DNA from: Clostridia bacterium
GTDB lineage: Bacteria; Bacillota; Clostridia; Christensenellales; CAG-138
DNA: 47,416 nt
NCBI GenBank assembly: GCA_017554455.1
Contig: JAFZIH010000075.1
Span: 1 to 47,416, forward strand
Direction of reading: 5' to 3'
Shown here piece after piece: positions 20,864-40,676 of the stretch. Both the position numbers and the translations under genes were made by a program. A model generated the notes under the pieces. That model was not told the DNA's origin and ran no database searches. It was given only the letters and a program-made list of their open reading frames with translations. How positions within the stretch are numbered: position 1 is the first letter of the stretch; every line of letters starts with the position of its first letter.

Positions 20864-21985
20864 ATGAGGATCATCAAAAGGAAATCCGTCGCGCTGATCG
20901 CAGCGCTGCTGTCGCTTTGCCTTGTGCTGCCGGTCGCGTGCTGGTGGGAACAGTCGGAAATCGTCGTTCTCCCGCCGGAAGATCCGACGAGCGTTCCGAC
21001 GTCGACTTTGGTTTCGGAGACCGATTCACCGGCGCCCGCAACGCCGACGCCGGTCCCGGATACGCCCGCGCCTGCGCCGGAAACGCCGACGTCTGCGCCG
21101 AATACGCCGACGGCCCCGGCAACGCCGATCCCTTCGACCTTTCTGTTCGGCGGGGCGGAGCTGCCGACCGGTATTACCGAGATTGACACGAGCACCGTCG
21201 GCGCAAACGGCGTCAAGGTCGTCGGAGAACGCTCGGATATCAAGCATATCACGCGTGAAGAGGTGAAGGTGCTGGTCAATCTTTGCCCGAATATCCGCAA
21301 GCTCGACCTCGATTACTGCTATCTGGACGACTATGCGCCGCTTGCGAAACTGACCGAGCTGACTTCGCTTTCGCTGATGACCTGCGGAAATCAGGAAGAC
21401 GGCGTCAAGCTGACGAACATCGACTGGATCGCGTCGCTTACGAATCTCAGACAGCTGAATCTGTGCCACAATGCCATCGACGATATCAGCGCGATCGCGG
21501 GTCTGGATCAGCTGGAATATCTGAACCTTGCCGACAACGATCTTCGCGACGAACAGCTGAAGTACCTGACCGGATTGTACAAGCTCAGGGAACTGGATCT
21601 GTATCAACTGCCGAAGCTGACGGACGTTTCGCCGCTTGCAAAACTTTCGGCGCTGGAATATCTGCACCTCGGTCAGGATCATTCGATCGAAACCGTAAAA
21701 CCGCTGACAGGTCTGGACAACCTGAGAAAGCTTCGGCTCAACGACACGGCCGTGGAAGACATCGGTTATATCGGCGATTTCACAGCGCTTCGATATCTGG
21801 ATCTGTCCAAATGCAGCCGGAACGCCTCTGCATACTATGCGCTGAAGGACTGCAAGAAACTCAAAGCAGTCACGATTTCCGACGCGACCGAGGACGTAAA
21901 GAACGTCTTTTATGACCTGTCTCCCATCGAACTGTGGGCAAAGTGGAACGATTCATCTTCGCGGCTGGTTCCGCCGAAGCACTGA
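20864..21985 (+). CDS. Leucine-rich-repeat surface lipoprotein
   Basis: The 373-residue protein starts with a lipoprotein signal peptide ending LPVAC (lipid-anchored Cys26). Residues 40-92 are a Pro/Thr/Ala-rich stalk of repeated TPTPVPDTP-like units, as in wall-spanning linkers. Residues about 125-345 form leucine-rich repeats of 21-23 residues, such as LTELTSLSLM, LTNLRQLNLCHNAIDDISAI and LDQLEYLNLADNDL. These are the SDS22/internalin-like repeats also seen in the TIR membrane proteins at 24992-30899. Such proteins usually bind other proteins or glycans at the surface; the ligand is unknown. Confidence 0.88.
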   Translation: MRIIKRKSVALIAALLSLCLVLPVACWWEQSEIVVLPPEDPTSVPTSTLVSETDSPAPATPTPVPDTPAPAPETPTSAPNTPTAPATPIPSTFLFGGAELPTGITEIDTSTVGANGVKVVGERSDIKHITREEVKVLVNLCPNIRKLDLDYCYLDDYAPLAKLTELTSLSLMTCGNQEDGVKLTNIDWIASLTNLRQLNLCHNAIDDISAIAGLDQLEYLNLADNDLRDEQLKYLTGLYKLRELDLYQLPKLTDVSPLAKLSALEYLHLGQDHSIETVKPLTGLDNLRKLRLNDTAVEDIGYIGDFTALRYLDLSKCSRNASAYYALKDCKKLKAVTISDATEDVKNVFYDLSPIELWAKWNDSSSRLVPPKH

Positions 21986-24991: not shown

Positions 24992-27900
24992 TCAGTATTC
25001 GATATCCAGCCGGAACGGGAAGTCGTCGCCGAGCGATTCCCGCGCCTGCGGCATGTCGTGTGAGATGCAGGCGGCGTCCAGATTTTTCAGCGTCAGAAGC
25101 GGCGAGATGTCCGTAAGCTCCCGCGTCCAGGAGACCTTGATGTATTCAAGTTCGGGATGCTGCTCGATAAACGCCTTGAATGTCTCGTTTGTGAAGCGAC
25201 AGTTGCCTGCGTGGATCTCACGGATCTTCACGTTTTTGACCGCGTCCATCCACAGCGCGCAGTCCGTGTTGAACACGTTCAGGCACCAGAATTCCGGGAA
25301 GACGGAGAGCACATGATACTGCGCAGGATCCAGTCGGTCCTCGAGATTGTCGACCGAAAGATCGAAGCCGCTCCAGTCCTGAAGGGGTTCGGTCAGATCG
25401 AGCGCCGCAAGTGGAGAGAGATCCGTCACCTGCGTGCCGCTGAGCGTCAGGTTCTGAAGATGCGGAAGCTTCTCAATGCCTTCGATGGACGTGATTCCGA
25501 GTCCGTTGACGTTGATCAGATAAAGCGAAGGCATGTCGAACAGCACGGAAACGTCGGTGATCTTCGGACAGGTACGAATTTCGACTTTCTCCAGATTCGT
25601 CAACACCTCGATGCCGTCCAGCGACTCGATCGGATTGCAGAAGATATCGAGCCGCCGGAGATTCAGAAGGCGGGACAGGAAGGAAAGGTCGGTAAGCGGT
25701 CCCTGCGTGACGCGGAACCGTTCGTTCGATCCGTTGCGGGAAAGGTAACCCGCGGTCCCGTTGGACGACCAGTCGTCATCGTACCACCAGCTGTCGGGAT
25801 TGTAGACGGTGTCGCCAACGATCCGGATCTCCCGCACCTTCGCAAGAACGGAATCCGGCAGGGCAAGGAAGTCTTCGACCGGCGTGCGGTCGATCGCAAA
25901 CAGGACCTCGCAGTCGTCCGGCAGCGCGCTGATCGGTGTGAAATCGGTAACGTCCGTCCACTGCAGATCGAAGAACCGCAGCTTCGAAAGCCCCTGCACG
26001 CCCTCGATCGAATCCACCTGCGTGGACCAGATCTTCAGCTCTTCAAGCTTCGTCAGATTCTGCACACCCTCGATCGAGGTGATCGGTGCGTTGGTGAGCT
26101 GTAGCTTTTTGAGATTCTGCATCGTAAACGCGGCGGACGCGTCGGTAAGATCAAAGCACGCCTCCACGCAAAGATCCTCCAGATTGCCGAGGTATTGGAT
26201 GCCTTCGAGCGATTCAAGCGCCTGGTTCTGGATGTTCAGGTTTTTAAGCCCCGTCAGCTTGGAAAGCCGCGAAAGGTCCGTCATGGTCCCAACCGGGATC
26301 TCCTCGCGCTCGCCCGTTTCGCGGTCGGTCACATAAAAGACCGGCGGATAAACGTTCCAATCTGTGTCCGTTTCCTGCATATCCCAATTGATGACCCGGT
26401 CTCCGTAGATGTTCAGATCCTGCACGTGGGCAAGCAGCGCGCTCGGCAGAGTGTCGAGCTCGTCGAGGGACAGGAGCTTCACGTACGGCTCATACGGATG
26501 CCACCATTCGTTCGGATACTCGATGTTGATCTCGCTGAAGTTGCCGCTTTCCTTCAGAAGGTTCGCATGCTGACTGAGATGCGCCGGCACGGAAAGCCGA
26601 TAGCCCTTCAGATGATTCAGCGGGGACAGATCCGTCACGCCGTCGATGTCAAAGAGCTCGATGTTGTAATACCCTTTCGGATCGAGGTTGGAAAGCGGGG
26701 AAAGGTCTTGTAGATCGACGATGGATTCCAGACGGATGGTGCTGACGGAAAGGTCTTTGAAGCTCGGCAGCGTAAAGAGCTGTTCAAGGCGCAGACTGCT
26801 GAGCGACAGCCCCTCGAGCGCCGACCAGTCGGAAAGACGCGGGCAGTCCCGGATCTCCAGATTGACGGCCTTGCTGTTTTTGATCCGGTTGAGGTTCTGA
26901 ATGCCGTCCAGCGAGGTCAGGAAATCGGATTCGCTGATCGTGACTTGCGTCACATCAAACGCGGGCAGTCCGACAAGCGTGGGAATGCCGTGCAGTCTCA
27001 GCTCGCTTTGCACATCCGGGAACAGGGAATAATCCAGCGGCGCGTCGCTGCCGCGGCTGTTGTTGCCGCGGAACCAAAGCTCAAACCGGTTGACCTTCGC
27101 GTCCTTGATATACGGCAGCGCGCTTCCGTTGCGGTCGGTCACGTTCAGGAAATCGTAGCGCGTGATCGCCGTAAGCCCGGACCAGTCGGCGACCTCGGAA
27201 ACGCCGAAGCTGAAATAATCCTTATTGACGATATCGGCAAGATAGTTCACGTGATCCGGACCGGCGCCGTACAGTTCCAGCGTTTTCAGCCGCGGCAGAG
27301 AAACGATGGGCGTCACGTCCTTGAGATCGAAACTTTCGGAGAACTTCACACGGTTCAGCGCCGTACAGCCGGACAGCGCGGAAATATCGGTCAGATTGTG
27401 AAGCCCCTCGCAATCAATCTCATTGAGCGCGGTATGGTTTTCCAGCCCGTGCAGGGAGCGGATCGAATCGGCGCTGCGCAGATACAGCGAGTTGAGCGAG
27501 CTTGCGCCGGACAGGAAGAAGACGTCCGACGTGCGGAAATCCTCGGCGTTAAAATGCCGAAGACCGGGACAGGCGATCAGCGCGTTCAGATCGGACAGCG
27601 CAAAGCAGTTGTCGATGTAAACCTCCTTCAGCTCCTTATGCTCCGCAAGACCGTTCAGGGAGGTGAGTGCGGGAAGGTTGTTCAAGTCAAGCTTTGCGAG
27701 CGACCTTGCGTTTGCAAGGCAGGAAAGATCAGGCAGCCGCAGATCTTCGAACCGGACCTCGGTGAGTTTATTACAAGCCAGAAGCCCGGACGCTTCCCGA
27801 ACGCCGTTTTCGCTGCCGGCGGACAGCGTCAGATTCGTCAATGACGGCGGTCCGAACGAATCGAGGTCCTGCGGCGCGTCGCCCGTCAGGTCCATATTGA

Positions 27901-28849
27901 TGTACCGCAGCCGTTCGCAGTTGTTGAGCGGAGAGAAATCCATCGCTTCGCCGGTATAATCCAGATTGATGATCCGCGTTCCCGCGAGCCCTGCAAGATC
28001 GGAAAGCCGGCTGTCAAAGATGCGCACGGAGTCCAGCCGAGAAAGTCCGGAAAGATCGGGCAGCGTGCCTTCCATACAGACCAGGTCCAGAAACTGCAGA
28101 TTGATCATGTAGCGCAGAAAATCCAGGTCGTCCCAACGGCACAGCGCGATCTCGTCCCCTGTGTCGTTGTCCAGCCAATGCGCGCCGTCACCGCCAGAGA
28201 TGCGGTGGACGTAGTTTTCCGCGTCGACCCGGGCGATGTGAAGTGCCGCCACCCATTCCTCGTCGCCGAACAGCGCGTAGAACCGATCGCCGATGATGAA
28301 CACCTGATGCACACGGGCAAGGTCCTCGGGCCTAAGACCCACTCTCTCCGGCACGCGCGGCACTGCGGTCGGCGCGGGCGTTTCCTGCGGTTCGGTCTGG
28401 GTCACGGCGGGCTTTGCCTTGATCGCGTTTACGATCAGCAGAACGGCGGCAGCGATCAGAACCGCGGCGCCCGCGATGCCGATGATCCACGGCAGCCGAT
28501 TCTTTTTGGCGACGGCGGACGCGATGCGCTCGGCAAGCTCGTCGGCGGAGTAGCGCTCCGCCGCGATCGTATTGCGCGCAAGCAGCGCGTTTTTGATCAG
28601 CTCCGGCGGCGTGCTTTCGTCCAGCGCGACCGGGATCAGCGACGCGGTCTTTGATTGAATCGCAAAGAACTGTGCCGCGGCGGGGGAATCCTCTTTGAGA
28701 TTCTCAGACAGAAAGAGCAGGACCGCGTCGCCGCGTTTCGGTTTGTCCGTTTTCCGCACGGGCACGCCCTTTTTGCGCAGAGCGTCCAGCACGGGACGCA
28801 CCGCTTCGGCGTCCGCGGGCGCGTACAGAGGACAGATCGTCTGTTTCAT
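24992..28849 (-). CDS. TIR-like/transmembrane/giant leucine-rich-repeat receptor-like protein
   Basis: This 1285-residue protein has three parts. Residues 1-110 look like a degenerate TIR fold: a beta strand at the start, LLFLSENL, then PVALDE. The segment where a catalytic Glu would stand reads AAAQFFAI and has none. Residues about 119-143 form one transmembrane helix, followed by a Pro/Thr-rich stalk. Residues 170-1285 are an outer leucine-rich-repeat array of SDS22/internalin type, for example LTDLSPLAAL and TSIEGIEKLPHLQNL. A module opening with an L-A-x-V...G-D motif recurs at about residues 177, 806 and 1002. It is the last gene of a three-gene operon, and its start has GGAAAGGAA upstream. 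N-in, C-out topology is predicted, not proven. Confidence 0.82.
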   Translation of the reverse strand: MKQTICPLYAPADAEAVRPVLDALRKKGVPVRKTDKPKRGDAVLLFLSENLKEDSPAAAQFFAIQSKTASLIPVALDESTPPELIKNALLARNTIAAERYSADELAERIASAVAKKNRLPWIIGIAGAAVLIAAAVLLIVNAIKAKPAVTQTEPQETPAPTAVPRVPERVGLRPEDLARVHQVFIIGDRFYALFGDEEWVAALHIARVDAENYVHRISGGDGAHWLDNDTGDEIALCRWDDLDFLRYMINLQFLDLVCMEGTLPDLSGLSRLDSVRIFDSRLSDLAGLAGTRIINLDYTGEAMDFSPLNNCERLRYINMDLTGDAPQDLDSFGPPSLTNLTLSAGSENGVREASGLLACNKLTEVRFEDLRLPDLSCLANARSLAKLDLNNLPALTSLNGLAEHKELKEVYIDNCFALSDLNALIACPGLRHFNAEDFRTSDVFFLSGASSLNSLYLRSADSIRSLHGLENHTALNEIDCEGLHNLTDISALSGCTALNRVKFSESFDLKDVTPIVSLPRLKTLELYGAGPDHVNYLADIVNKDYFSFGVSEVADWSGLTAITRYDFLNVTDRNGSALPYIKDAKVNRFELWFRGNNSRGSDAPLDYSLFPDVQSELRLHGIPTLVGLPAFDVTQVTISESDFLTSLDGIQNLNRIKNSKAVNLEIRDCPRLSDWSALEGLSLSSLRLEQLFTLPSFKDLSVSTIRLESIVDLQDLSPLSNLDPKGYYNIELFDIDGVTDLSPLNHLKGYRLSVPAHLSQHANLLKESGNFSEINIEYPNEWWHPYEPYVKLLSLDELDTLPSALLAHVQDLNIYGDRVINWDMQETDTDWNVYPPVFYVTDRETGEREEIPVGTMTDLSRLSKLTGLKNLNIQNQALESLEGIQYLGNLEDLCVEACFDLTDASAAFTMQNLKKLQLTNAPITSIEGVQNLTKLEELKIWSTQVDSIEGVQGLSKLRFFDLQWTDVTDFTPISALPDDCEVLFAIDRTPVEDFLALPDSVLAKVREIRIVGDTVYNPDSWWYDDDWSSNGTAGYLSRNGSNERFRVTQGPLTDLSFLSRLLNLRRLDIFCNPIESLDGIEVLTNLEKVEIRTCPKITDVSVLFDMPSLYLINVNGLGITSIEGIEKLPHLQNLTLSGTQVTDLSPLAALDLTEPLQDWSGFDLSVDNLEDRLDPAQYHVLSVFPEFWCLNVFNTDCALWMDAVKNVKIREIHAGNCRFTNETFKAFIEQHPELEYIKVSWTRELTDISPLLTLKNLDAACISHDMPQARESLGDDFPFRLDIEY

Positions 28850-28872
28850 GGTTCGGGTTCCTTTCCTGATTT

Positions 28873-30072
28873 TTATCGGACGACGCGCACGATATACGGC
28901 GCGTCCGGTTCAAGGTTCAGCGGAAGCATATCGATGCTGACCGTCACGACGGAAAGCGCGGGAAGGGCGGACAGCCCCGTAAGATCAGTTACGGCGGTAT
29001 GTTCAAGGTGCAGCGAACGGAGCTGGGGCAGGTCATTGAGCGCTTCAATGCTCTCGACGCTGCTGCCGGAAAGCCAGAGTTCCTCCAAAACAACGTGCCC
29101 GTTCAGCGGAGAAAGGTCGGAAAGCGGCTGCCGGATGAGCGCGAGCCGTTCAAGATACGGCATATCGGAAATCACCGAAAGCTTCGTTACGTCACCTTCG
29201 ATCACGGCGCCGCTGCCGACACGGCAGGTCCCGTCCGCGTCGAACCGAACGTCGGACGTGTCGGTAAGATGCATATGCCCGCACAAAAACAGCTCCGTGA
29301 CGCCGTTCAGCTCGCTTTTATAGACACCGCCGGAGGACTTCCCGATCGCTGCGCGCACCGCGTTTTCCAGCAGCTTGCTGCCGCCGAAGTTCACCGGGAG
29401 CAAGCTTTCGTAACCGGACACATCCGGCGTCGGCGCAGGGGAGGGCGCTTCCGTCACGTACGGCGTCGGCGTCGGCGTCGGGGTCGGGGCAAAGGTCGCG
29501 GGAACCTCGGCGGTTTTTTTGAATGGATCGATCCGTCCGGTCAGGATGCCGTACAGCACAGCAAGCGTCAGCGCCATGAAAAGCAGCGCGGCAAAAAGCC
29601 CCATGCGGTCGAAACGAATGTTTTCACCGCGGCGGCGGTAGAACGAGCGCCCGAGTATGCGTGCGTTTCGCACGCCGGAAAGGATCGCCGCGTCGTCCGC
29701 CTCGTTCTTGAGGTCGATCGTCGTACCTTTGGAAAGCAGCGCGGTCCATCGTTCGTCGATCGGAGCGTCGTCCAGCGGAACGATCAGAAGAGGGCGATTT
29801 TCCGCGACCGCCGTTGCGATCTCGCTGAAACAGTTGGGCGACGCAAGCGCGGTCTTCGAACGGAAGAACAGCACCGCGCCGCACGCGCGCATATGCGCGT
29901 CAATGTTGCTCGACCAGTCGTTGCCGGCGGGGATGCCCTCGTCGTACCAAAGCCGCAGCTTGCCGTCGTGCAGCGGCTTGATGATCGACAGGACCCGCTC
30001 GGTGTCACGGTGCGAGTAGCTGATGAAAACGTAGGGGCGTTTGCCCTCGAACGGGCGGAAAAAGGTCGTCAC
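28873..30072 (-). CDS. TIR-transmembrane-leucine-rich-repeat protein with canonical TIR
   Basis: The 399-residue protein starts at GTG 30072, which overlaps the previous stop codon (GTGA) and has GGAGG nine or ten bases upstream. The longer frame to 30606 lies over the upstream gene and is a shadow. Residues 10-145 are a canonical TIR domain: YVFISYSHRD, then LRLWYDEGIPAG, and SPNCFSEIATAV, where Glu84 is the predicted NADase residue. A transmembrane helix spans about 157-177 and a TPTPTPTPY-type Pro/Thr stalk about 190-217. The rest is a small LRR ectodomain with the N-cap LLENAVRAAIGKSSGG. It is the only operon member with an intact TIR core, so it is the likely signalling or effector subunit. 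NAD hydrolysis is inferred. Confidence 0.85.
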   Translation of the reverse strand: MTTFFRPFEGKRPYVFISYSHRDTERVLSIIKPLHDGKLRLWYDEGIPAGNDWSSNIDAHMRACGAVLFFRSKTALASPNCFSEIATAVAENRPLLIVPLDDAPIDERWTALLSKGTTIDLKNEADDAAILSGVRNARILGRSFYRRRGENIRFDRMGLFAALLFMALTLAVLYGILTGRIDPFKKTAEVPATFAPTPTPTPTPYVTEAPSPAPTPDVSGYESLLPVNFGGSKLLENAVRAAIGKSSGGVYKSELNGVTELFLCGHMHLTDTSDVRFDADGTCRVGSGAVIEGDVTKLSVISDMPYLERLALIRQPLSDLSPLNGHVVLEELWLSGSSVESIEALNDLPQLRSLHLEHTAVTDLTGLSALPALSVVTVSIDMLPLNLEPDAPYIVRVVR

Positions 30073-30899
30073 GGCGCGTCGCCTCCGATCAGCACGATCT
30101 CGTACGTGTCCGAAAGCGTCAGCACGCGCTCGGCGTCCGAAAGGACGGCGTCCTGTGTAAGCTCGATCCGCGTCAGGTTCGGAAGCAGCGCAAGCTCGGA
30201 AAGATCCTCCGGAAGCGCCGAAAGGCGCAGCGTCGTCACGCCGGGAAGCGATACCTCCGTGATGAGACCGTTGATCGCACTGCGGACTGCCGCGGTCAGG
30301 GTCGGATCGGAAAAGAAGACGGTGTCCGTTTCCTGCGGTTCGACCGCGGCGGGCGGGGAGAACCGCCCGTACAGCAGCGCGCCCGTCAGCAGCAACGCAG
30401 CGAGCACGGCCACCGTCACCGCAAGCGCACGTACCCAATGGGACGCTTCCTTCTGCGGAGGACCCAAAAGATCCTGCGTAAAGCCCTTCGCCCGCAAAAG
30501 CGCCGCCTCGATCTCGTGCGGCGAAGCGCCCTCCAAAGACAGCGTCGGCGTATCGGAGGGCAGGCCGATCGAAAGCCCGCTGTCCCCGCCGTCGGTGTTG
30601 AGACACAGGAGCGTCTGTCCGCGCATATGACAGGCAAGCGCACGGCCTTTCGCGGTCACGTCCGCGCGGAACGCATCGTCAAGATACAGCACCACGAGCG
30701 CGGCGCTGCGCATCCGTTCTTCATTCGCGCGAAGCGCTTGTGCGGTTGCGCCGTTGTCCGCGGCGTACCATACGCGCACCCCGCGCCGCCAGAGCCGTCC
30801 CAGGAGCGGACGCACGCGCTTTTGATCCGCGTCCGAAAAGCAAAGATACAGATACGGCTCTTTACCCGCATAGGGCGGGAACGCCTTGGTCGCCTTCAT
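30069..30899 (-). CDS. Degenerate TIR-transmembrane-LRR protein, first gene of the operon
   Basis: The 276-residue protein mirrors the next gene's layout in shortened form. Residues 14-105 follow the TIR pattern (YLYLCFSDAD, then VRVWYAADNGA, then ALVVLYLDDAF), but the Ser-Tyr-Ser loop is altered and no Glu stands at the catalytic position. A transmembrane helix lies at about 155-177. The outer part has the LRR N-cap FFSDPTLTAAVRSAI and a couple of repeats (VTTLRLSALPEDLSELALL). AAAGGAGA precedes ATG 30899. Its stop overlaps the GTG of the next gene, so the two are translationally coupled and probably made in fixed ratio. A regulatory or scaffold partner is likely, but unproven. Confidence 0.78.
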   Translation of the reverse strand: MKATKAFPPYAGKEPYLYLCFSDADQKRVRPLLGRLWRRGVRVWYAADNGATAQALRANEERMRSAALVVLYLDDAFRADVTAKGRALACHMRGQTLLCLNTDGGDSGLSIGLPSDTPTLSLEGASPHEIEAALLRAKGFTQDLLGPPQKEASHWVRALAVTVAVLAALLLTGALLYGRFSPPAAVEPQETDTVFFSDPTLTAAVRSAINGLITEVSLPGVTTLRLSALPEDLSELALLPNLTRIELTQDAVLSDAERVLTLSDTYEIVLIGGDAP

Positions 30900-37218: not shown

Positions 37219-37279
37219 AAACAGACCGTCTCCGGTTCGCAGAACCTTGTCTATACAGCTGTAAAAAAACGCCCAACAA

Positions 37280-37307
37280 AAAAAGTCCCGGGATTCGGGA
37301 CTTTTTT
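37280..37307. terminator. Bidirectional terminator between convergent genes
   Basis: AGTCCCG pairs with CGGGACT over a GGATT loop, with an A-run before and a T-run after. It ends the rightward operon and the leftward TIR-propeller gene. Confidence 0.9.
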
Positions 37308-37334
37308 GATCGCAGCGGCGAAAACTGTCCGCGT

Positions 37335-40300
37335 TTACGGATCAATGCCATACGAGGCGCGTTCGCTTTCGGACAGCGTTTCGCCGTTCAGGAAGCGTTT
37401 ACCGAACTCGATCAGCTCCGCAACGGAGTAGCGCGGGGCAAACATCATCAGATAATCGTTGTCCGGACTCTGGAAATACAGCATCCGGCGGGAGGGCGAG
37501 TAATGCACGACGTTGTCGGCGCTCAGACAGACCGTCCAGTCGGTGAGATTTACGATGTTCAGCGTACCGTCCATGAGCAAGGCGAGCTCGCCGTCCGAAA
37601 AAGTCCATACCGTCTGCTGCACAGAGCTCAATTCGCTGTCAAGGGACGTGCTTCCGAGAAACCGGCCGTCCGCCGCGGCGTAGCGGTCAAGATGATACTG
37701 ATCGTCCCGGCTCAGGACCAGCAGAAGGTCCTCCTCCGCGCCGGCGTCTTCCGCTTTGCAGAAACGGACGGAAAAGACGGTGCGCGCATTGTCGCTGATT
37801 TCATAGAGCGGTTTGCCGTCAGATCCGCAGACGACCGCTTTCTGCTTGTCGCTGACGGCAAACAGCGATCCGGAGGCAGACGCATCCGCACTGACGGGAT
37901 TGTCGGTCAACGCGGCGTCCAAATATGACCACATATCCGTCGCGGGATCATAAAGACTCGGCGCATACGGGCGTGCGTCACGGTCCGTCTCATAAACGGT
38001 CAGCATGGTCTGCCGATCGTTCGCCATGATCGCAGGGGACAGATACCCGTCCGGAACGTCGATCTCTTTTTCATACGCAAACGTACCGTCCGGCTGCACA
38101 AGCAGGAACAGCAAGCGGTTTTTCCAGACGTTGTTTTCCAGGCAGCGGAGAGAAAAGCAAAGCCGGTCATTCAGAACGATACAGTCTCCGAAGATGGTTC
38201 CGCCGGATTGTTCTTTGAGATCGAAAGAATCCGTCAGCGTCCCGCTTTCGACGTCTACGGTATATATCGCGGACGGAGAACTTGTTTGCACGATCAGATA
38301 TCGGAAAGAGGCGTCGACGCCGATCAGATCTATGAAGGTGCTGTCAAAATCGGTTGAAAAACTGCGGATCAGCTTCTTTTCGTCCGGATCATAGAGGTCG
38401 AATGTCCGGCGGCTGTCCGAAAACTGTCCGCTCATCATCACGATCGGACGATCCTCTTCTGCTAATCCCTGCAAGCTTACGCTTCCGTAGGATACGGCGC
38501 CGTCAAAAGGAAGCAGATTTTCATCCCAGATGTTTTCATAGATCTGCAGACGCTTGCCGCCCGCTTTTACGATATAGATCCAGTTGCCGTCCGACGCCGG
38601 GAAGCGTTCCGCGTCAAGCAGTTCCTTTCGGAACATATCAATGCTCAGCGCCGACGTGCTGCCGGGTGCGTATAACACAAAATGTCCGTTGTGCTGTTCG
38701 ATCATCAGCCGGCTTCCGTCGGCTGTGAAGTCGGTATTGACGATCTCCGAATCCGTCTTGAACTGCGCAAATAAGCTCCCATCGTCCTGATCGTAAAAGA
38801 AGATCTCGTTTCCGCAGATTGCGGCCGTCAGAGCATGGGGCGCGCCGTATGTGTCGACCGTCTCACACGCAAAGCAGCTTTTTCGGTTTCGGATGTATTG
38901 CAGCGCAGAAGATGTGAATTGAGAGTTCCAAAGCGTCTTGCCGGTCCGTGTGTCGACGCATCGGACGGAAAGAACCGTCTGCTCCAGCATGACCATTCCG
39001 TTCATCGAAAAAGCGCCGGTTCCGTCCGAAATGCCGTACAAAACGATCCGTCCGTCCGACAGCGGAACGATCGTAAACAAACTCGTAAACAGCGGATCCA
39101 GCGGATACGTTTCGATCTCGCCGGTGTCGAGCGAACAGCACCGGAGTTCGTCATATTGCGTGTATGTTCGGGTTACAAAACAGAGCCGACCGTTTTGTTC
39201 GTCAAAGGCGACGGAGCCGACCGACTGGGCGAACGAAAACGGGGACGGGCTGCTTTGGAAAATCTCCGCGCCTGTGGACGGATCCAGTTCAAGGACTTCC
39301 AGCAGGTTCTCCGACGCCCATTGTTCGTTGATCCTGTAAATGTTTTCAATGACAAAGATGCGGTCATGATCGACGAACGCGGCAAGCAGACTGACGGACT
39401 CCTTTGAATAGGTCCAGATCGTTTCGCCGCTGATGCCGTCCAGCAGCAGGATCGCGTCTGAACCCATTACGGCAATACAAAGCCGCGATCCGACGTGAAC
39501 GATATGCAACGAACGGATCGTCCGACCGGTCTGGCGTGCAAAGAGCGTTCGATGCCCCAAAAGGTCCCACGCGTAAACATAGCCGGAGTAATCGTATGCA
39601 AAGGCAAGCCGCTGATCCGGATCGACCAGATAGTCTTCGATCGTGCCGCGCGTCGACATATTCCAGACTGCGCGATAGGTGGTGTAATCGCGGATGGTAT
39701 ATGTGGCGATCGCTTTGTGCATGGCAAATTCGGCGACGGCGGTATACGGCCGCTCCGGATGCTCCTCGGAGGGCAGAGCGGCCAGCGCAAGCTGTACGGC
39801 AAGGACGCGGTTCTCCGATTTGGTCTCGTTGAGCGATTCGTTGGCAAGGTAAACGGACTGATTTCGATATGCCTGCGTGAGGTTCGCTTCCGCCTGCGCG
39901 TAATTCGTTTCTGCAAGCAGCCGGTTTTCCTCCGCCTGCGCATAGTTCGCTTCGGCAAGCAGCCGGTTTTCCTCTGCCTGCTGCCAGTTGCTGCGGATCT
40001 GACGATTGCTCCAGATAAGATATCCGATCGCGACGGAGATGAGTACAGCCGCCGCGGACGCAAACGCCGCGAGACGCCGCATTTTGTATTGCCGCGCGCG
40101 CATGATCAGCTCGTCATAGGAACAGCCCAAAAGCGCGGCGGCGAGCCGCGGAATCTCCGTTCTGCGGGCGGTTTTCATGTTGCGATAATCGCAGGAGAGC
40201 GGTTCGAGAACCTGCTTTTGCTCCGTGGCGTTGCCGGATGCGTCTTCCGTTATGACGGTTTCTTCACACAGAATGGACGGGATGACGTCGTTCGGCTCTC

Positions 40301-40637
40301 CGTCGACCAGCACCGTCAGAACATGATTGCGATCGTGCGTTTTCAGAAACTGTTCGATCTCGCGCGGGACCCATGTGGAATACTTTGTGGAGGTGGAACA
40401 GATGACGATCAGAAATTCCGCGTCATTCAATGCCCGAACGATATCGCGGCCGAGGTCGCTTGTAATGGGGAGTTCCTCCTGATCCCGAAAGATACGCTCG
40501 ATCTTTTGCCGTCCGGTTTTTTTCCGGATCGCCTTGGGCACGCGAAAATGCTCCAGCCGATGCTGGACTTCCCGCGCGACGGCGATGTCGGCCGGCGCAT
40601 GCTTGTAGGAGATGAAAGCGTTGTAATGAAACTGCAT
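37335..40637 (-). CDS. TIR-transmembrane-coiled-coil-beta-propeller protein
   Basis: The 1100-residue protein has an N-terminal TIR domain (residues 4-180): FHYNAFISYKHAPAD, an FRDQEELPITSDLG segment and STWVPREIEQFL with Glu93 at the predicted catalytic position. A transmembrane helix lies at about 188-208. It is followed by a Gln/Glu/Ala-rich coiled coil built from near-identical 14-residue repeats (NYAQAEENRLLAE). Residues about 300-1080 form repeated beta strands of WD40/PQQ type, such as YSGYVYAWDLLGHRTLFARQ and SGETIWTYSKES, consistent with one or two propellers. A good promoter and a GGGGAG ribosome site stand upstream. Outer-face ligand sensing with inner TIR signalling is inferred; related proteins exist in gut Clostridia to my knowledge. 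Confidence 0.85.
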   Translation of the reverse strand: MQFHYNAFISYKHAPADIAVAREVQHRLEHFRVPKAIRKKTGRQKIERIFRDQEELPITSDLGRDIVRALNDAEFLIVICSTSTKYSTWVPREIEQFLKTHDRNHVLTVLVDGEPNDVIPSILCEETVITEDASGNATEQKQVLEPLSCDYRNMKTARRTEIPRLAAALLGCSYDELIMRARQYKMRRLAAFASAAAVLISVAIGYLIWSNRQIRSNWQQAEENRLLAEANYAQAEENRLLAETNYAQAEANLTQAYRNQSVYLANESLNETKSENRVLAVQLALAALPSEEHPERPYTAVAEFAMHKAIATYTIRDYTTYRAVWNMSTRGTIEDYLVDPDQRLAFAYDYSGYVYAWDLLGHRTLFARQTGRTIRSLHIVHVGSRLCIAVMGSDAILLLDGISGETIWTYSKESVSLLAAFVDHDRIFVIENIYRINEQWASENLLEVLELDPSTGAEIFQSSPSPFSFAQSVGSVAFDEQNGRLCFVTRTYTQYDELRCCSLDTGEIETYPLDPLFTSLFTIVPLSDGRIVLYGISDGTGAFSMNGMVMLEQTVLSVRCVDTRTGKTLWNSQFTSSALQYIRNRKSCFACETVDTYGAPHALTAAICGNEIFFYDQDDGSLFAQFKTDSEIVNTDFTADGSRLMIEQHNGHFVLYAPGSTSALSIDMFRKELLDAERFPASDGNWIYIVKAGGKRLQIYENIWDENLLPFDGAVSYGSVSLQGLAEEDRPIVMMSGQFSDSRRTFDLYDPDEKKLIRSFSTDFDSTFIDLIGVDASFRYLIVQTSSPSAIYTVDVESGTLTDSFDLKEQSGGTIFGDCIVLNDRLCFSLRCLENNVWKNRLLFLLVQPDGTFAYEKEIDVPDGYLSPAIMANDRQTMLTVYETDRDARPYAPSLYDPATDMWSYLDAALTDNPVSADASASGSLFAVSDKQKAVVCGSDGKPLYEISDNARTVFSVRFCKAEDAGAEEDLLLVLSRDDQYHLDRYAAADGRFLGSTSLDSELSSVQQTVWTFSDGELALLMDGTLNIVNLTDWTVCLSADNVVHYSPSRRMLYFQSPDNDYLMMFAPRYSVAELIEFGKRFLNGETLSESERASYGIDP
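39879..39984 (-). repeat. 42-bp tandem repeat within the TIR-propeller gene
   Basis: Two close copies of a 42-bp unit (39901-39942 and 39943-39984) and a partial third encode the 14-residue repeats of the coiled coil. In-register length changes would lengthen or shorten the stalk by 14 residues. Confidence 0.8.
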
Positions 40638-40676
40638 AATGCTCCCCTTTCACGCAAGTGCGATCCATTCCACTAC

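What the first reader, a model, noticed from the sequence alone, without database searches (positions are those of the whole stretch)
37335..40637. Fourth TIR membrane protein with a repeat coiled-coil stalk and a propeller ectodomain
Some 6.4 kb from the TIR-LRR operon, a separate gene pairs a TIR domain (with Glu93) with a transmembrane helix, a coiled coil and a large WD40/PQQ-like ectodomain. Two different ectodomain types on the same inner module within 16 kb suggest a family of modular TIR sensors in this genome.
Basis: partly seen in the sequence, partly recalled or inferred. Interest (0 to 1): 0.7.

Follow-up and report, generated by a model that had tools for sequence, protein, structure and literature searches.

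The report
Membrane TIR receptor with propeller ectodomain
A gut Clostridia bacterium carries a single-pass membrane protein whose inner half is a TIR enzyme domain (the type that destroys NAD+ in immunity) and whose outer half is a large propeller-shaped sensor; it belongs to a family found in many Clostridia that is built like a receptor reading something outside the cell.

Summary
Window 37335-40637 (-) encodes one 1100-aa protein: N-terminal TIR domain with Glu93, one membrane helix (aa ~190-210), an alanine/glutamate-rich helical stalk with a 14-aa repeat, and a WD40/PQQ-type propeller. The architecture recurs in 38 aligned proteins from at least seven GTDB families of Clostridia. In all 38 Glu93 is invariant, and the hydrophobic segment has more Lys/Arg on its TIR side, predicting TIR in, propeller out. 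The TIR half is far better conserved than the outer half (50% vs 22% mean identity). One relative has a Ser/Thr kinase instead of the TIR on the same membrane-stalk-propeller module, as in receptor kinases such as M. tuberculosis PknD, whose propeller is extracellular. The same genome has other TIR-membrane proteins with LRR and RCC1-type outer parts, so the "modular TIR sensors" reading is largely right. Not shown: a canonical coiled coil, blade number, ligand, NADase activity, anti-phage role. The neighbourhood is housekeeping, with no conserved partner and no viral-contig relative. Best reading: an outside-in receptor that cleaves NAD+ when ligand clusters its propellers. New variant of a known kind.

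The parts
37335..40637 (-). whole gene, 1100 aa: TIR - membrane helix - helical stalk - propeller
   Evidence: ORF; single full-length copy in the genome; full-length relative at 37% identity (L031)
40642..40650 (-). ribosome-binding-like site AAAGGGGAG upstream of the ATG
   Evidence: read in the sequence; inference
40239..40625 (-). TIR domain, aa 5-133
   Evidence: Pfam TIR_2 and ThsB_TIR over cut-off; PDB sequence matches to plant, CRISPR-Cat1 and bacterial TIRs; structure matches
40359..40361 (-). codon of Glu93, the predicted catalytic glutamate (motif WVPREI)
   Evidence: invariant in 38/38 aligned proteins; aligns with Roq1 'WCLEEL'
40008..40070 (-). single transmembrane helix, aa 190-210
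   Evidence: hydropathy and charge bias at the same place in 38/38
39852..40007 (-). Ala/Glu-rich helical stalk, aa 211-262; length varies among relatives
   Evidence: alignment; predicted continuous helix (low confidence); no heptad period
39889..39981 (-). 42-bp tandem repeat (14 aa, 2.2 copies) within the stalk
   Evidence: Tandem Repeats Finder score 151
39699..39851 (-). conserved helical hairpin ending '...NRVLAVQLALAALP...AEFAMHKAIATY', aa 263-313, shared with a kinase-headed relative
   Evidence: alignments; same motif in L195
37440..39692 (-). predicted extracytoplasmic WD40/PQQ-type beta-propeller region, aa 316-1066 (blade number not determined)
   Evidence: PQQ_2; profile against solved WD40 propellers; strand-rich prediction
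37338..37433 (-). conserved C-terminal tail 'RYSVAELIEFGKRFLNGETLSESERASYGIDP', aa 1069-1100
   Evidence: alignment; same type of tail in many class-wide relatives
37278..37310 (-). terminator-like inverted repeat with T-run after the stop codon
   Evidence: read in the sequence; inference

Best explanation
A single-pass membrane receptor. The TIR domain lies in the cytoplasm (N-in), the helix at aa 190-210 crosses the membrane, and the stalk and propeller lie outside (C-out). Inferred working: a ligand or surface change outside clusters or rotates the propellers. The stalk passes this through the membrane and brings the TIR domains together in the active arrangement. Through Glu93 they then cleave NAD+, either depleting it (growth arrest or suicide) or releasing an ADP-ribose-type signal. 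Shown by computation: domains, conserved glutamate, conserved membrane segment with charge bias, fast-evolving outer half, and the swap of TIR for a Ser/Thr kinase on the same outer module. Inferred: topology (strongly), oligomer switch, NADase activity. Guess: that the signal is an attacker such as a phage or rival bacterium.
For: TIR and Glu93. Topology: K/R excess on the TIR side in 38/38. Family in at least seven GTDB families of Clostridia. Kinase-TM-stalk-propeller relative L195 with Pkinase 1.9e-35 and PQQ_2 2.8e-10. The same plan is known for PknD, whose propeller sensor is extracellular and whose kinase is activated by dimerisation (PMC3601408). TIR 50% versus outer half 22% mean identity over 703 pairs, higher in 98.6% of pairs; window versus L031 78% versus 28%. 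Other TIR-TM-ectodomain genes in the same genome.
Against: No activity, ligand or localisation is measured. The outer half could not be modelled (mean pLDDT 46). Its Cys content (1.6%) is ordinary for both exported and cytoplasmic proteins of this genome, so that topology test is undecided. In several relatives the hydrophobic segment is only moderately hydrophobic (KD 1.45-1.7). No defence genes lie beside it and no partner is conserved across the family.
Confidence: 0.62

Rival explanations
1. Same topology and enzyme, but a housekeeping sensor of the cell envelope, nutrients or peptides that makes an NAD-derived signal, not an immune or suicide receptor.
For: Solitary gene among housekeeping genes; in relatives the neighbours are Sua5, a DHH-DHHA1 phosphoesterase, or an M13 peptidase lipoprotein; no relative on viral contigs; patchy but chromosomal.
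Against: TIR domains of known bacterial function mostly act in phage defence (established knowledge); the outer half diverges fast; the gene looks exchanged between families.
Confidence: 0.35
2. The TIR domain is a scaffold that assembles other proteins, without cleaving NAD+.
For: Many animal TIR domains are scaffolds; the best structural match is MyD88 TIR, though the difference in Z from enzymatic TIRs is about 1 and not meaningful.
Against: Glu93 invariant in 38/38 and aligned with the glutamate of plant NADase TIRs; no partner gene is conserved across the family.
Confidence: 0.15
3. The hydrophobic segment only anchors or is buried, and the propeller works in the cytoplasm as WD40 propellers usually do.
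For: WD40 propellers are mostly cytoplasmic; composition test undecided; hydropathy alone is within reach of shuffles.
Against: Position and charge bias conserved in 38/38; one transmembrane pass puts the halves on opposite sides; a kinase-headed version with the same module parallels PknD.
Confidence: 0.12

Closest known systems
Receptor Ser/Thr kinases with propeller sensors (PknD of M. tuberculosis)
   Same: Cytoplasmic enzyme, one membrane helix, extracellular beta-propeller; a kinase-headed relative of this very module exists (L195)
   Different: TIR instead of kinase; WD40/PQQ-type propeller region of ~750 aa instead of a six-bladed one; long repeat stalk
Animal Toll-like receptors
   Same: TIR inside, one membrane helix, repeat-protein sensor outside (predicted here)
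   Different: Reversed order (TIR is N-terminal here); propeller instead of LRR; predicted enzyme with conserved glutamate; no adaptor proteins seen
Thoeris (ThsB) and other bacterial TIR defence systems (SPARTA, CBASS TIR-SAVED, CRISPR Cat1)
   Same: TIR fold and conserved glutamate; Pfam ThsB_TIR model matches
   Different: Those are cytoplasmic systems with partner proteins or nucleic-acid or cyclic-nucleotide triggers; here a predicted membrane receptor with no partner found
Bacterial and plant TIR-NB-LRR/WD40 (STAND) proteins
   Same: TIR head with WD40 or LRR sensor
   Different: No nucleotide-binding domain; membrane helix and stalk in its place

Membership tests
TIR domain superfamily | TIR fold and sequence profile | tested here: met
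   TIR_2 and ThsB_TIR over cut-off; PDB sequence and structure matches
TIR NADases | catalytic glutamate in the helix after strand C | tested here: met
   Glu93 in 38/38 and aligned with Roq1
TIR NADases | NAD+ cleavage on self-association | not testable with these tools
   needs an enzyme assay
Single-pass receptors with N-in/C-out topology | one membrane helix with positive charges on the cytoplasmic side | tested here: met
   38/38; prediction, not measured
Single-pass receptors with N-in/C-out topology | sensor composition typical of exported proteins (few cysteines) | tested here: inconclusive
   Cys 1.58% against medians 1.24% exported and 1.73% cytoplasmic
Beta-propeller (WD40/PQQ) proteins | WD40 or PQQ repeat profile | tested here: met
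   PQQ_2 over cut-off; family profile to solved WD40s 3.1e-27
Beta-propeller (WD40/PQQ) proteins | closed ring of blades in a model | tested here: inconclusive
   full-length model pLDDT 46
Coiled-coil stalk | heptad (3.5-residue) hydrophobic period | tested here: not met
   no 3.5-residue peak in the window protein or five relatives; a helical repeat remains likely
Thoeris | ThsA partner (STALD/SLOG domain) | tested here: inconclusive
   no STALD in the genome, but the search also found none in any control genome; no ThsA-like neighbour
Toll-like receptors | N-terminal LRR ectodomain, C-terminal TIR | tested here: not met
   TIR is N-terminal and the ectodomain is a propeller
TIR-STAND (NLR-like) | NB-ARC/NACHT/STAND ATPase between TIR and sensor | tested here: not met
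   no NTPase model match; a membrane helix and stalk occupy that place

The most novel reading that the evidence does not exclude
Clostridia have a Toll-like logic of their own: families of membrane receptors with cytoplasmic NAD+-cleaving TIR domains and interchangeable outer sensors (WD40/PQQ propeller, RCC1 propeller, LRR) that detect phages or rivals at the cell surface before entry.
Probability: 0.3. Interest if true: 0.85.

Novelty: new variant of a known kind. Interest (0 to 1): 0.52.

Why it matters
The bacterial TIR defence systems with known function that I know of sense signals inside the cell. A widespread family predicted to sense outside and cut NAD+ inside would be an outside-in TIR receptor in bacteria, comparable in plan to Toll-like receptors but with reversed order, and common in gut Clostridia. 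The kinase-for-TIR swap gives a direct way to test signalling with chimeras.

Tried and rejected
Cysteine exclusion as a topology test: does not discriminate in this genome. Search of viral contigs for relatives: none. Thoeris partner search: uninformative control. A methyltransferase neighbour matching a PADLOC 'mad2' model was judged a generic methyltransferase match, not a defence system. Literature searches for transmembrane bacterial TIR-propeller proteins found no description in the held library; subscription papers are mostly not held, and one likely relevant paper (PMC7685563) could not be read. A resemblance of the helical hairpin and C-terminal tail to those of nSTAND1-WD40 proteins is recalled from memory and was not tested.

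Full report
Observation. The window encodes at 37335-40637 (-) a single 1100-aa protein with its own ribosome-binding-like site and a terminator-like repeat, so it is probably transcribed alone. Pfam finds a TIR domain (TIR_2 4.4e-8, ThsB_TIR 9.1e-8) and a PQQ/BamB-type propeller region (3.4e-8), all above curated cut-offs. NCBIfam gives only sub-threshold BamB matches, and PADLOC gives only weak ThsB/SAVED-TIR similarity. The genome (2.29 Mb, 166 contigs, 88% complete) has one copy.

Family. In the GTDB family of the source genome, 20 of 103 genomes, the source genome included, have a match. Full-length relatives are L031 (a MAG labelled Lachnospiraceae, 37% identity) and L032/L033 (Clostridia MAG from goat colon, 26%). 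A profile of the part after the TIR finds matches in 23 of 291 genomes sampled across the class, but few among 398 genomes drawn from the phylum. Of 19 class-wide proteins read in full, 18 are TIR - hydrophobic segment - stalk - propeller and one is kinase-headed.

TIR. A profile of 21 family TIR domains matches solved TIRs of L6, Roq1, AT1G72930, CRISPR Cat1, TcpB and AbTir by sequence. The model of aa 1-185 (pLDDT 67, pTM 0.67) aligns best to TIR domains throughout: MyD88 Z 9.3, SPARTA 8.9, SARM1 8.1. Foldseek alone was weak (no E below 0.001). Glu93 (WVPREI) is invariant in 38/38 and falls on the glutamate of Roq1 'WCLEEL' in the alignment; that this is Roq1's catalytic residue is established knowledge, not tested here.

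Membrane segment and topology. Hydropathy alone is not remarkable for an 1100-aa protein: 10% of shuffles reach 2.19 somewhere. But all 38 have a hydrophobic segment directly after the TIR domain, of poorly conserved sequence, with 5-9 Lys/Arg in the 15 residues before it and 1-4 in the 15 after it, more before than after in 38/38. By the positive-inside rule this puts the TIR inside and the propeller outside. The sequences are related, so 38 is not 38 independent events. Cysteine content could not decide.

Stalk. Its length varies from almost nothing (L033, L034) to several repeats (L043, L040). Prediction gives one long helix from the end of the TIR to aa 268 (low confidence). The hydrophobic period of a canonical coiled coil is absent, so I call it a helical repeat stalk.

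Propeller. The outer half of the family matches WD40 propellers of known structure (2ymu 3.1e-27, Apaf-1, PkwA). Some relatives have strong WD40 repeats (L181, L185, L176) and others PQQ-type matches like the window protein. I could not determine the number of blades.

Module swap. L195 carries a Ser/Thr protein kinase (Pkinase 1.9e-35), a membrane helix at aa 313, the same helical hairpin and C-terminal tail motif, and a PQQ_2 propeller (2.8e-10). It is a rare form: one clear case in 79 genomes of that family (the second hit there matched only the kinase part). Receptor kinases of this plan have the sensor outside; PknD's extracellular six-bladed propeller and activation by dimerisation are described in PMC3601408. 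This is the main argument beyond charge bias for a sensor outside.

Evolution. Over 703 pairs the TIR part averages 50% identity and the outer part 22%, as expected for a conserved output with a changing sensor; relaxed constraint would also produce this. In the TIR tree the window gene sits with relatives from other GTDB families (branch 100/100), sister to L031 (99/99), while its genus mates carry another clade. This suggests horizontal acquisition or an old duplicate. GC content is ordinary.

Other TIR receptors. The same genome has TIR-TM-LRR on contig 64, TIR-TM-RCC1 propeller on contig 165, the LRR operon in the window, and a zinc-ribbon-like/TIR protein with C-terminal hydrophobic segments on contig 153. 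21 of 23 genus genomes have TIR_2 matches, most of those read being TIR-TM proteins. So three kinds of outer part (LRR, RCC1 propeller, WD40/PQQ propeller) are used in one genome. The TIR subfamilies and linkers differ, so this is one plan reached with different parts, not one inner cassette with exchanged sensors.

Context. Neighbours in the window are housekeeping-like (P-loop proteins, methyltransferase, M3 peptidase, HAD hydrolase); no defence system is called. In relatives, recurring neighbours occur only within related groups: Sua5 upstream in five, a convergent DHH-DHHA1 phosphoesterase in six, a lipoprotein upstream in three (M13 peptidase in the one tested). No relative was found on viral contigs.

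Verdict. A real, conserved membrane TIR receptor family; topology well supported but not measured; NADase activity likely; biological trigger unknown. New variant of a known kind. The held literature has no description of it that I could find, which does not prove it is undescribed.

Noticed in passing
window 24992-30899 (-): TIR-TM-LRR operon: a full TIR-TM protein (28873) flanked by two proteins whose TIR-like heads look degenerate (24992, 30069). A similar pairing of a true TIR-TM-LRR with a degenerate TIR-TM partner occurs in L134, L135, L136 and L139.
   Followed up: partly
L056:4254-5951 (-) (same genome, contig 165): TIR-TM protein with an RCC1-type propeller ectodomain (RCC1_2 5e-59), a third ectodomain type.
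   Followed up: partly
L055:4226-6379 (-) (same genome, contig 64): TIR-TM-LRR protein separate from the window's operon.
   Followed up: partly
L195:2822-5671 (-): Ser/Thr kinase - TM - same stalk hairpin - PQQ propeller - same tail: kinase in place of TIR.
   Followed up: partly
L143, L144, L145, L057: Another TIR family of the genus: zinc-ribbon-like N-terminus, TIR, often a hydrophobic segment and repeats of about 40 aa; often in tandem clusters of two or three. L143:10063-12783 has repeated 'KADGTVVATKYTGDP' units.
   Followed up: no
window 20864-21985 (+): Exported-looking LRR protein with a signal-peptide-like N-terminus, 3 kb from the TIR-LRR operon on the other strand; possible partner of the LRR receptors.
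   Followed up: no
L182, L183, L186, L188, L190, L194: DHH-DHHA1 phosphoesterase gene convergent with the TIR-propeller gene in six genomes of two GTDB families; could turn over a nucleotide signal or be mere synteny.
   Followed up: partly
L178, L179, L184: Lipoprotein gene directly upstream, same strand; the L178 copy is an M13-family peptidase by Pfam.
   Followed up: partly
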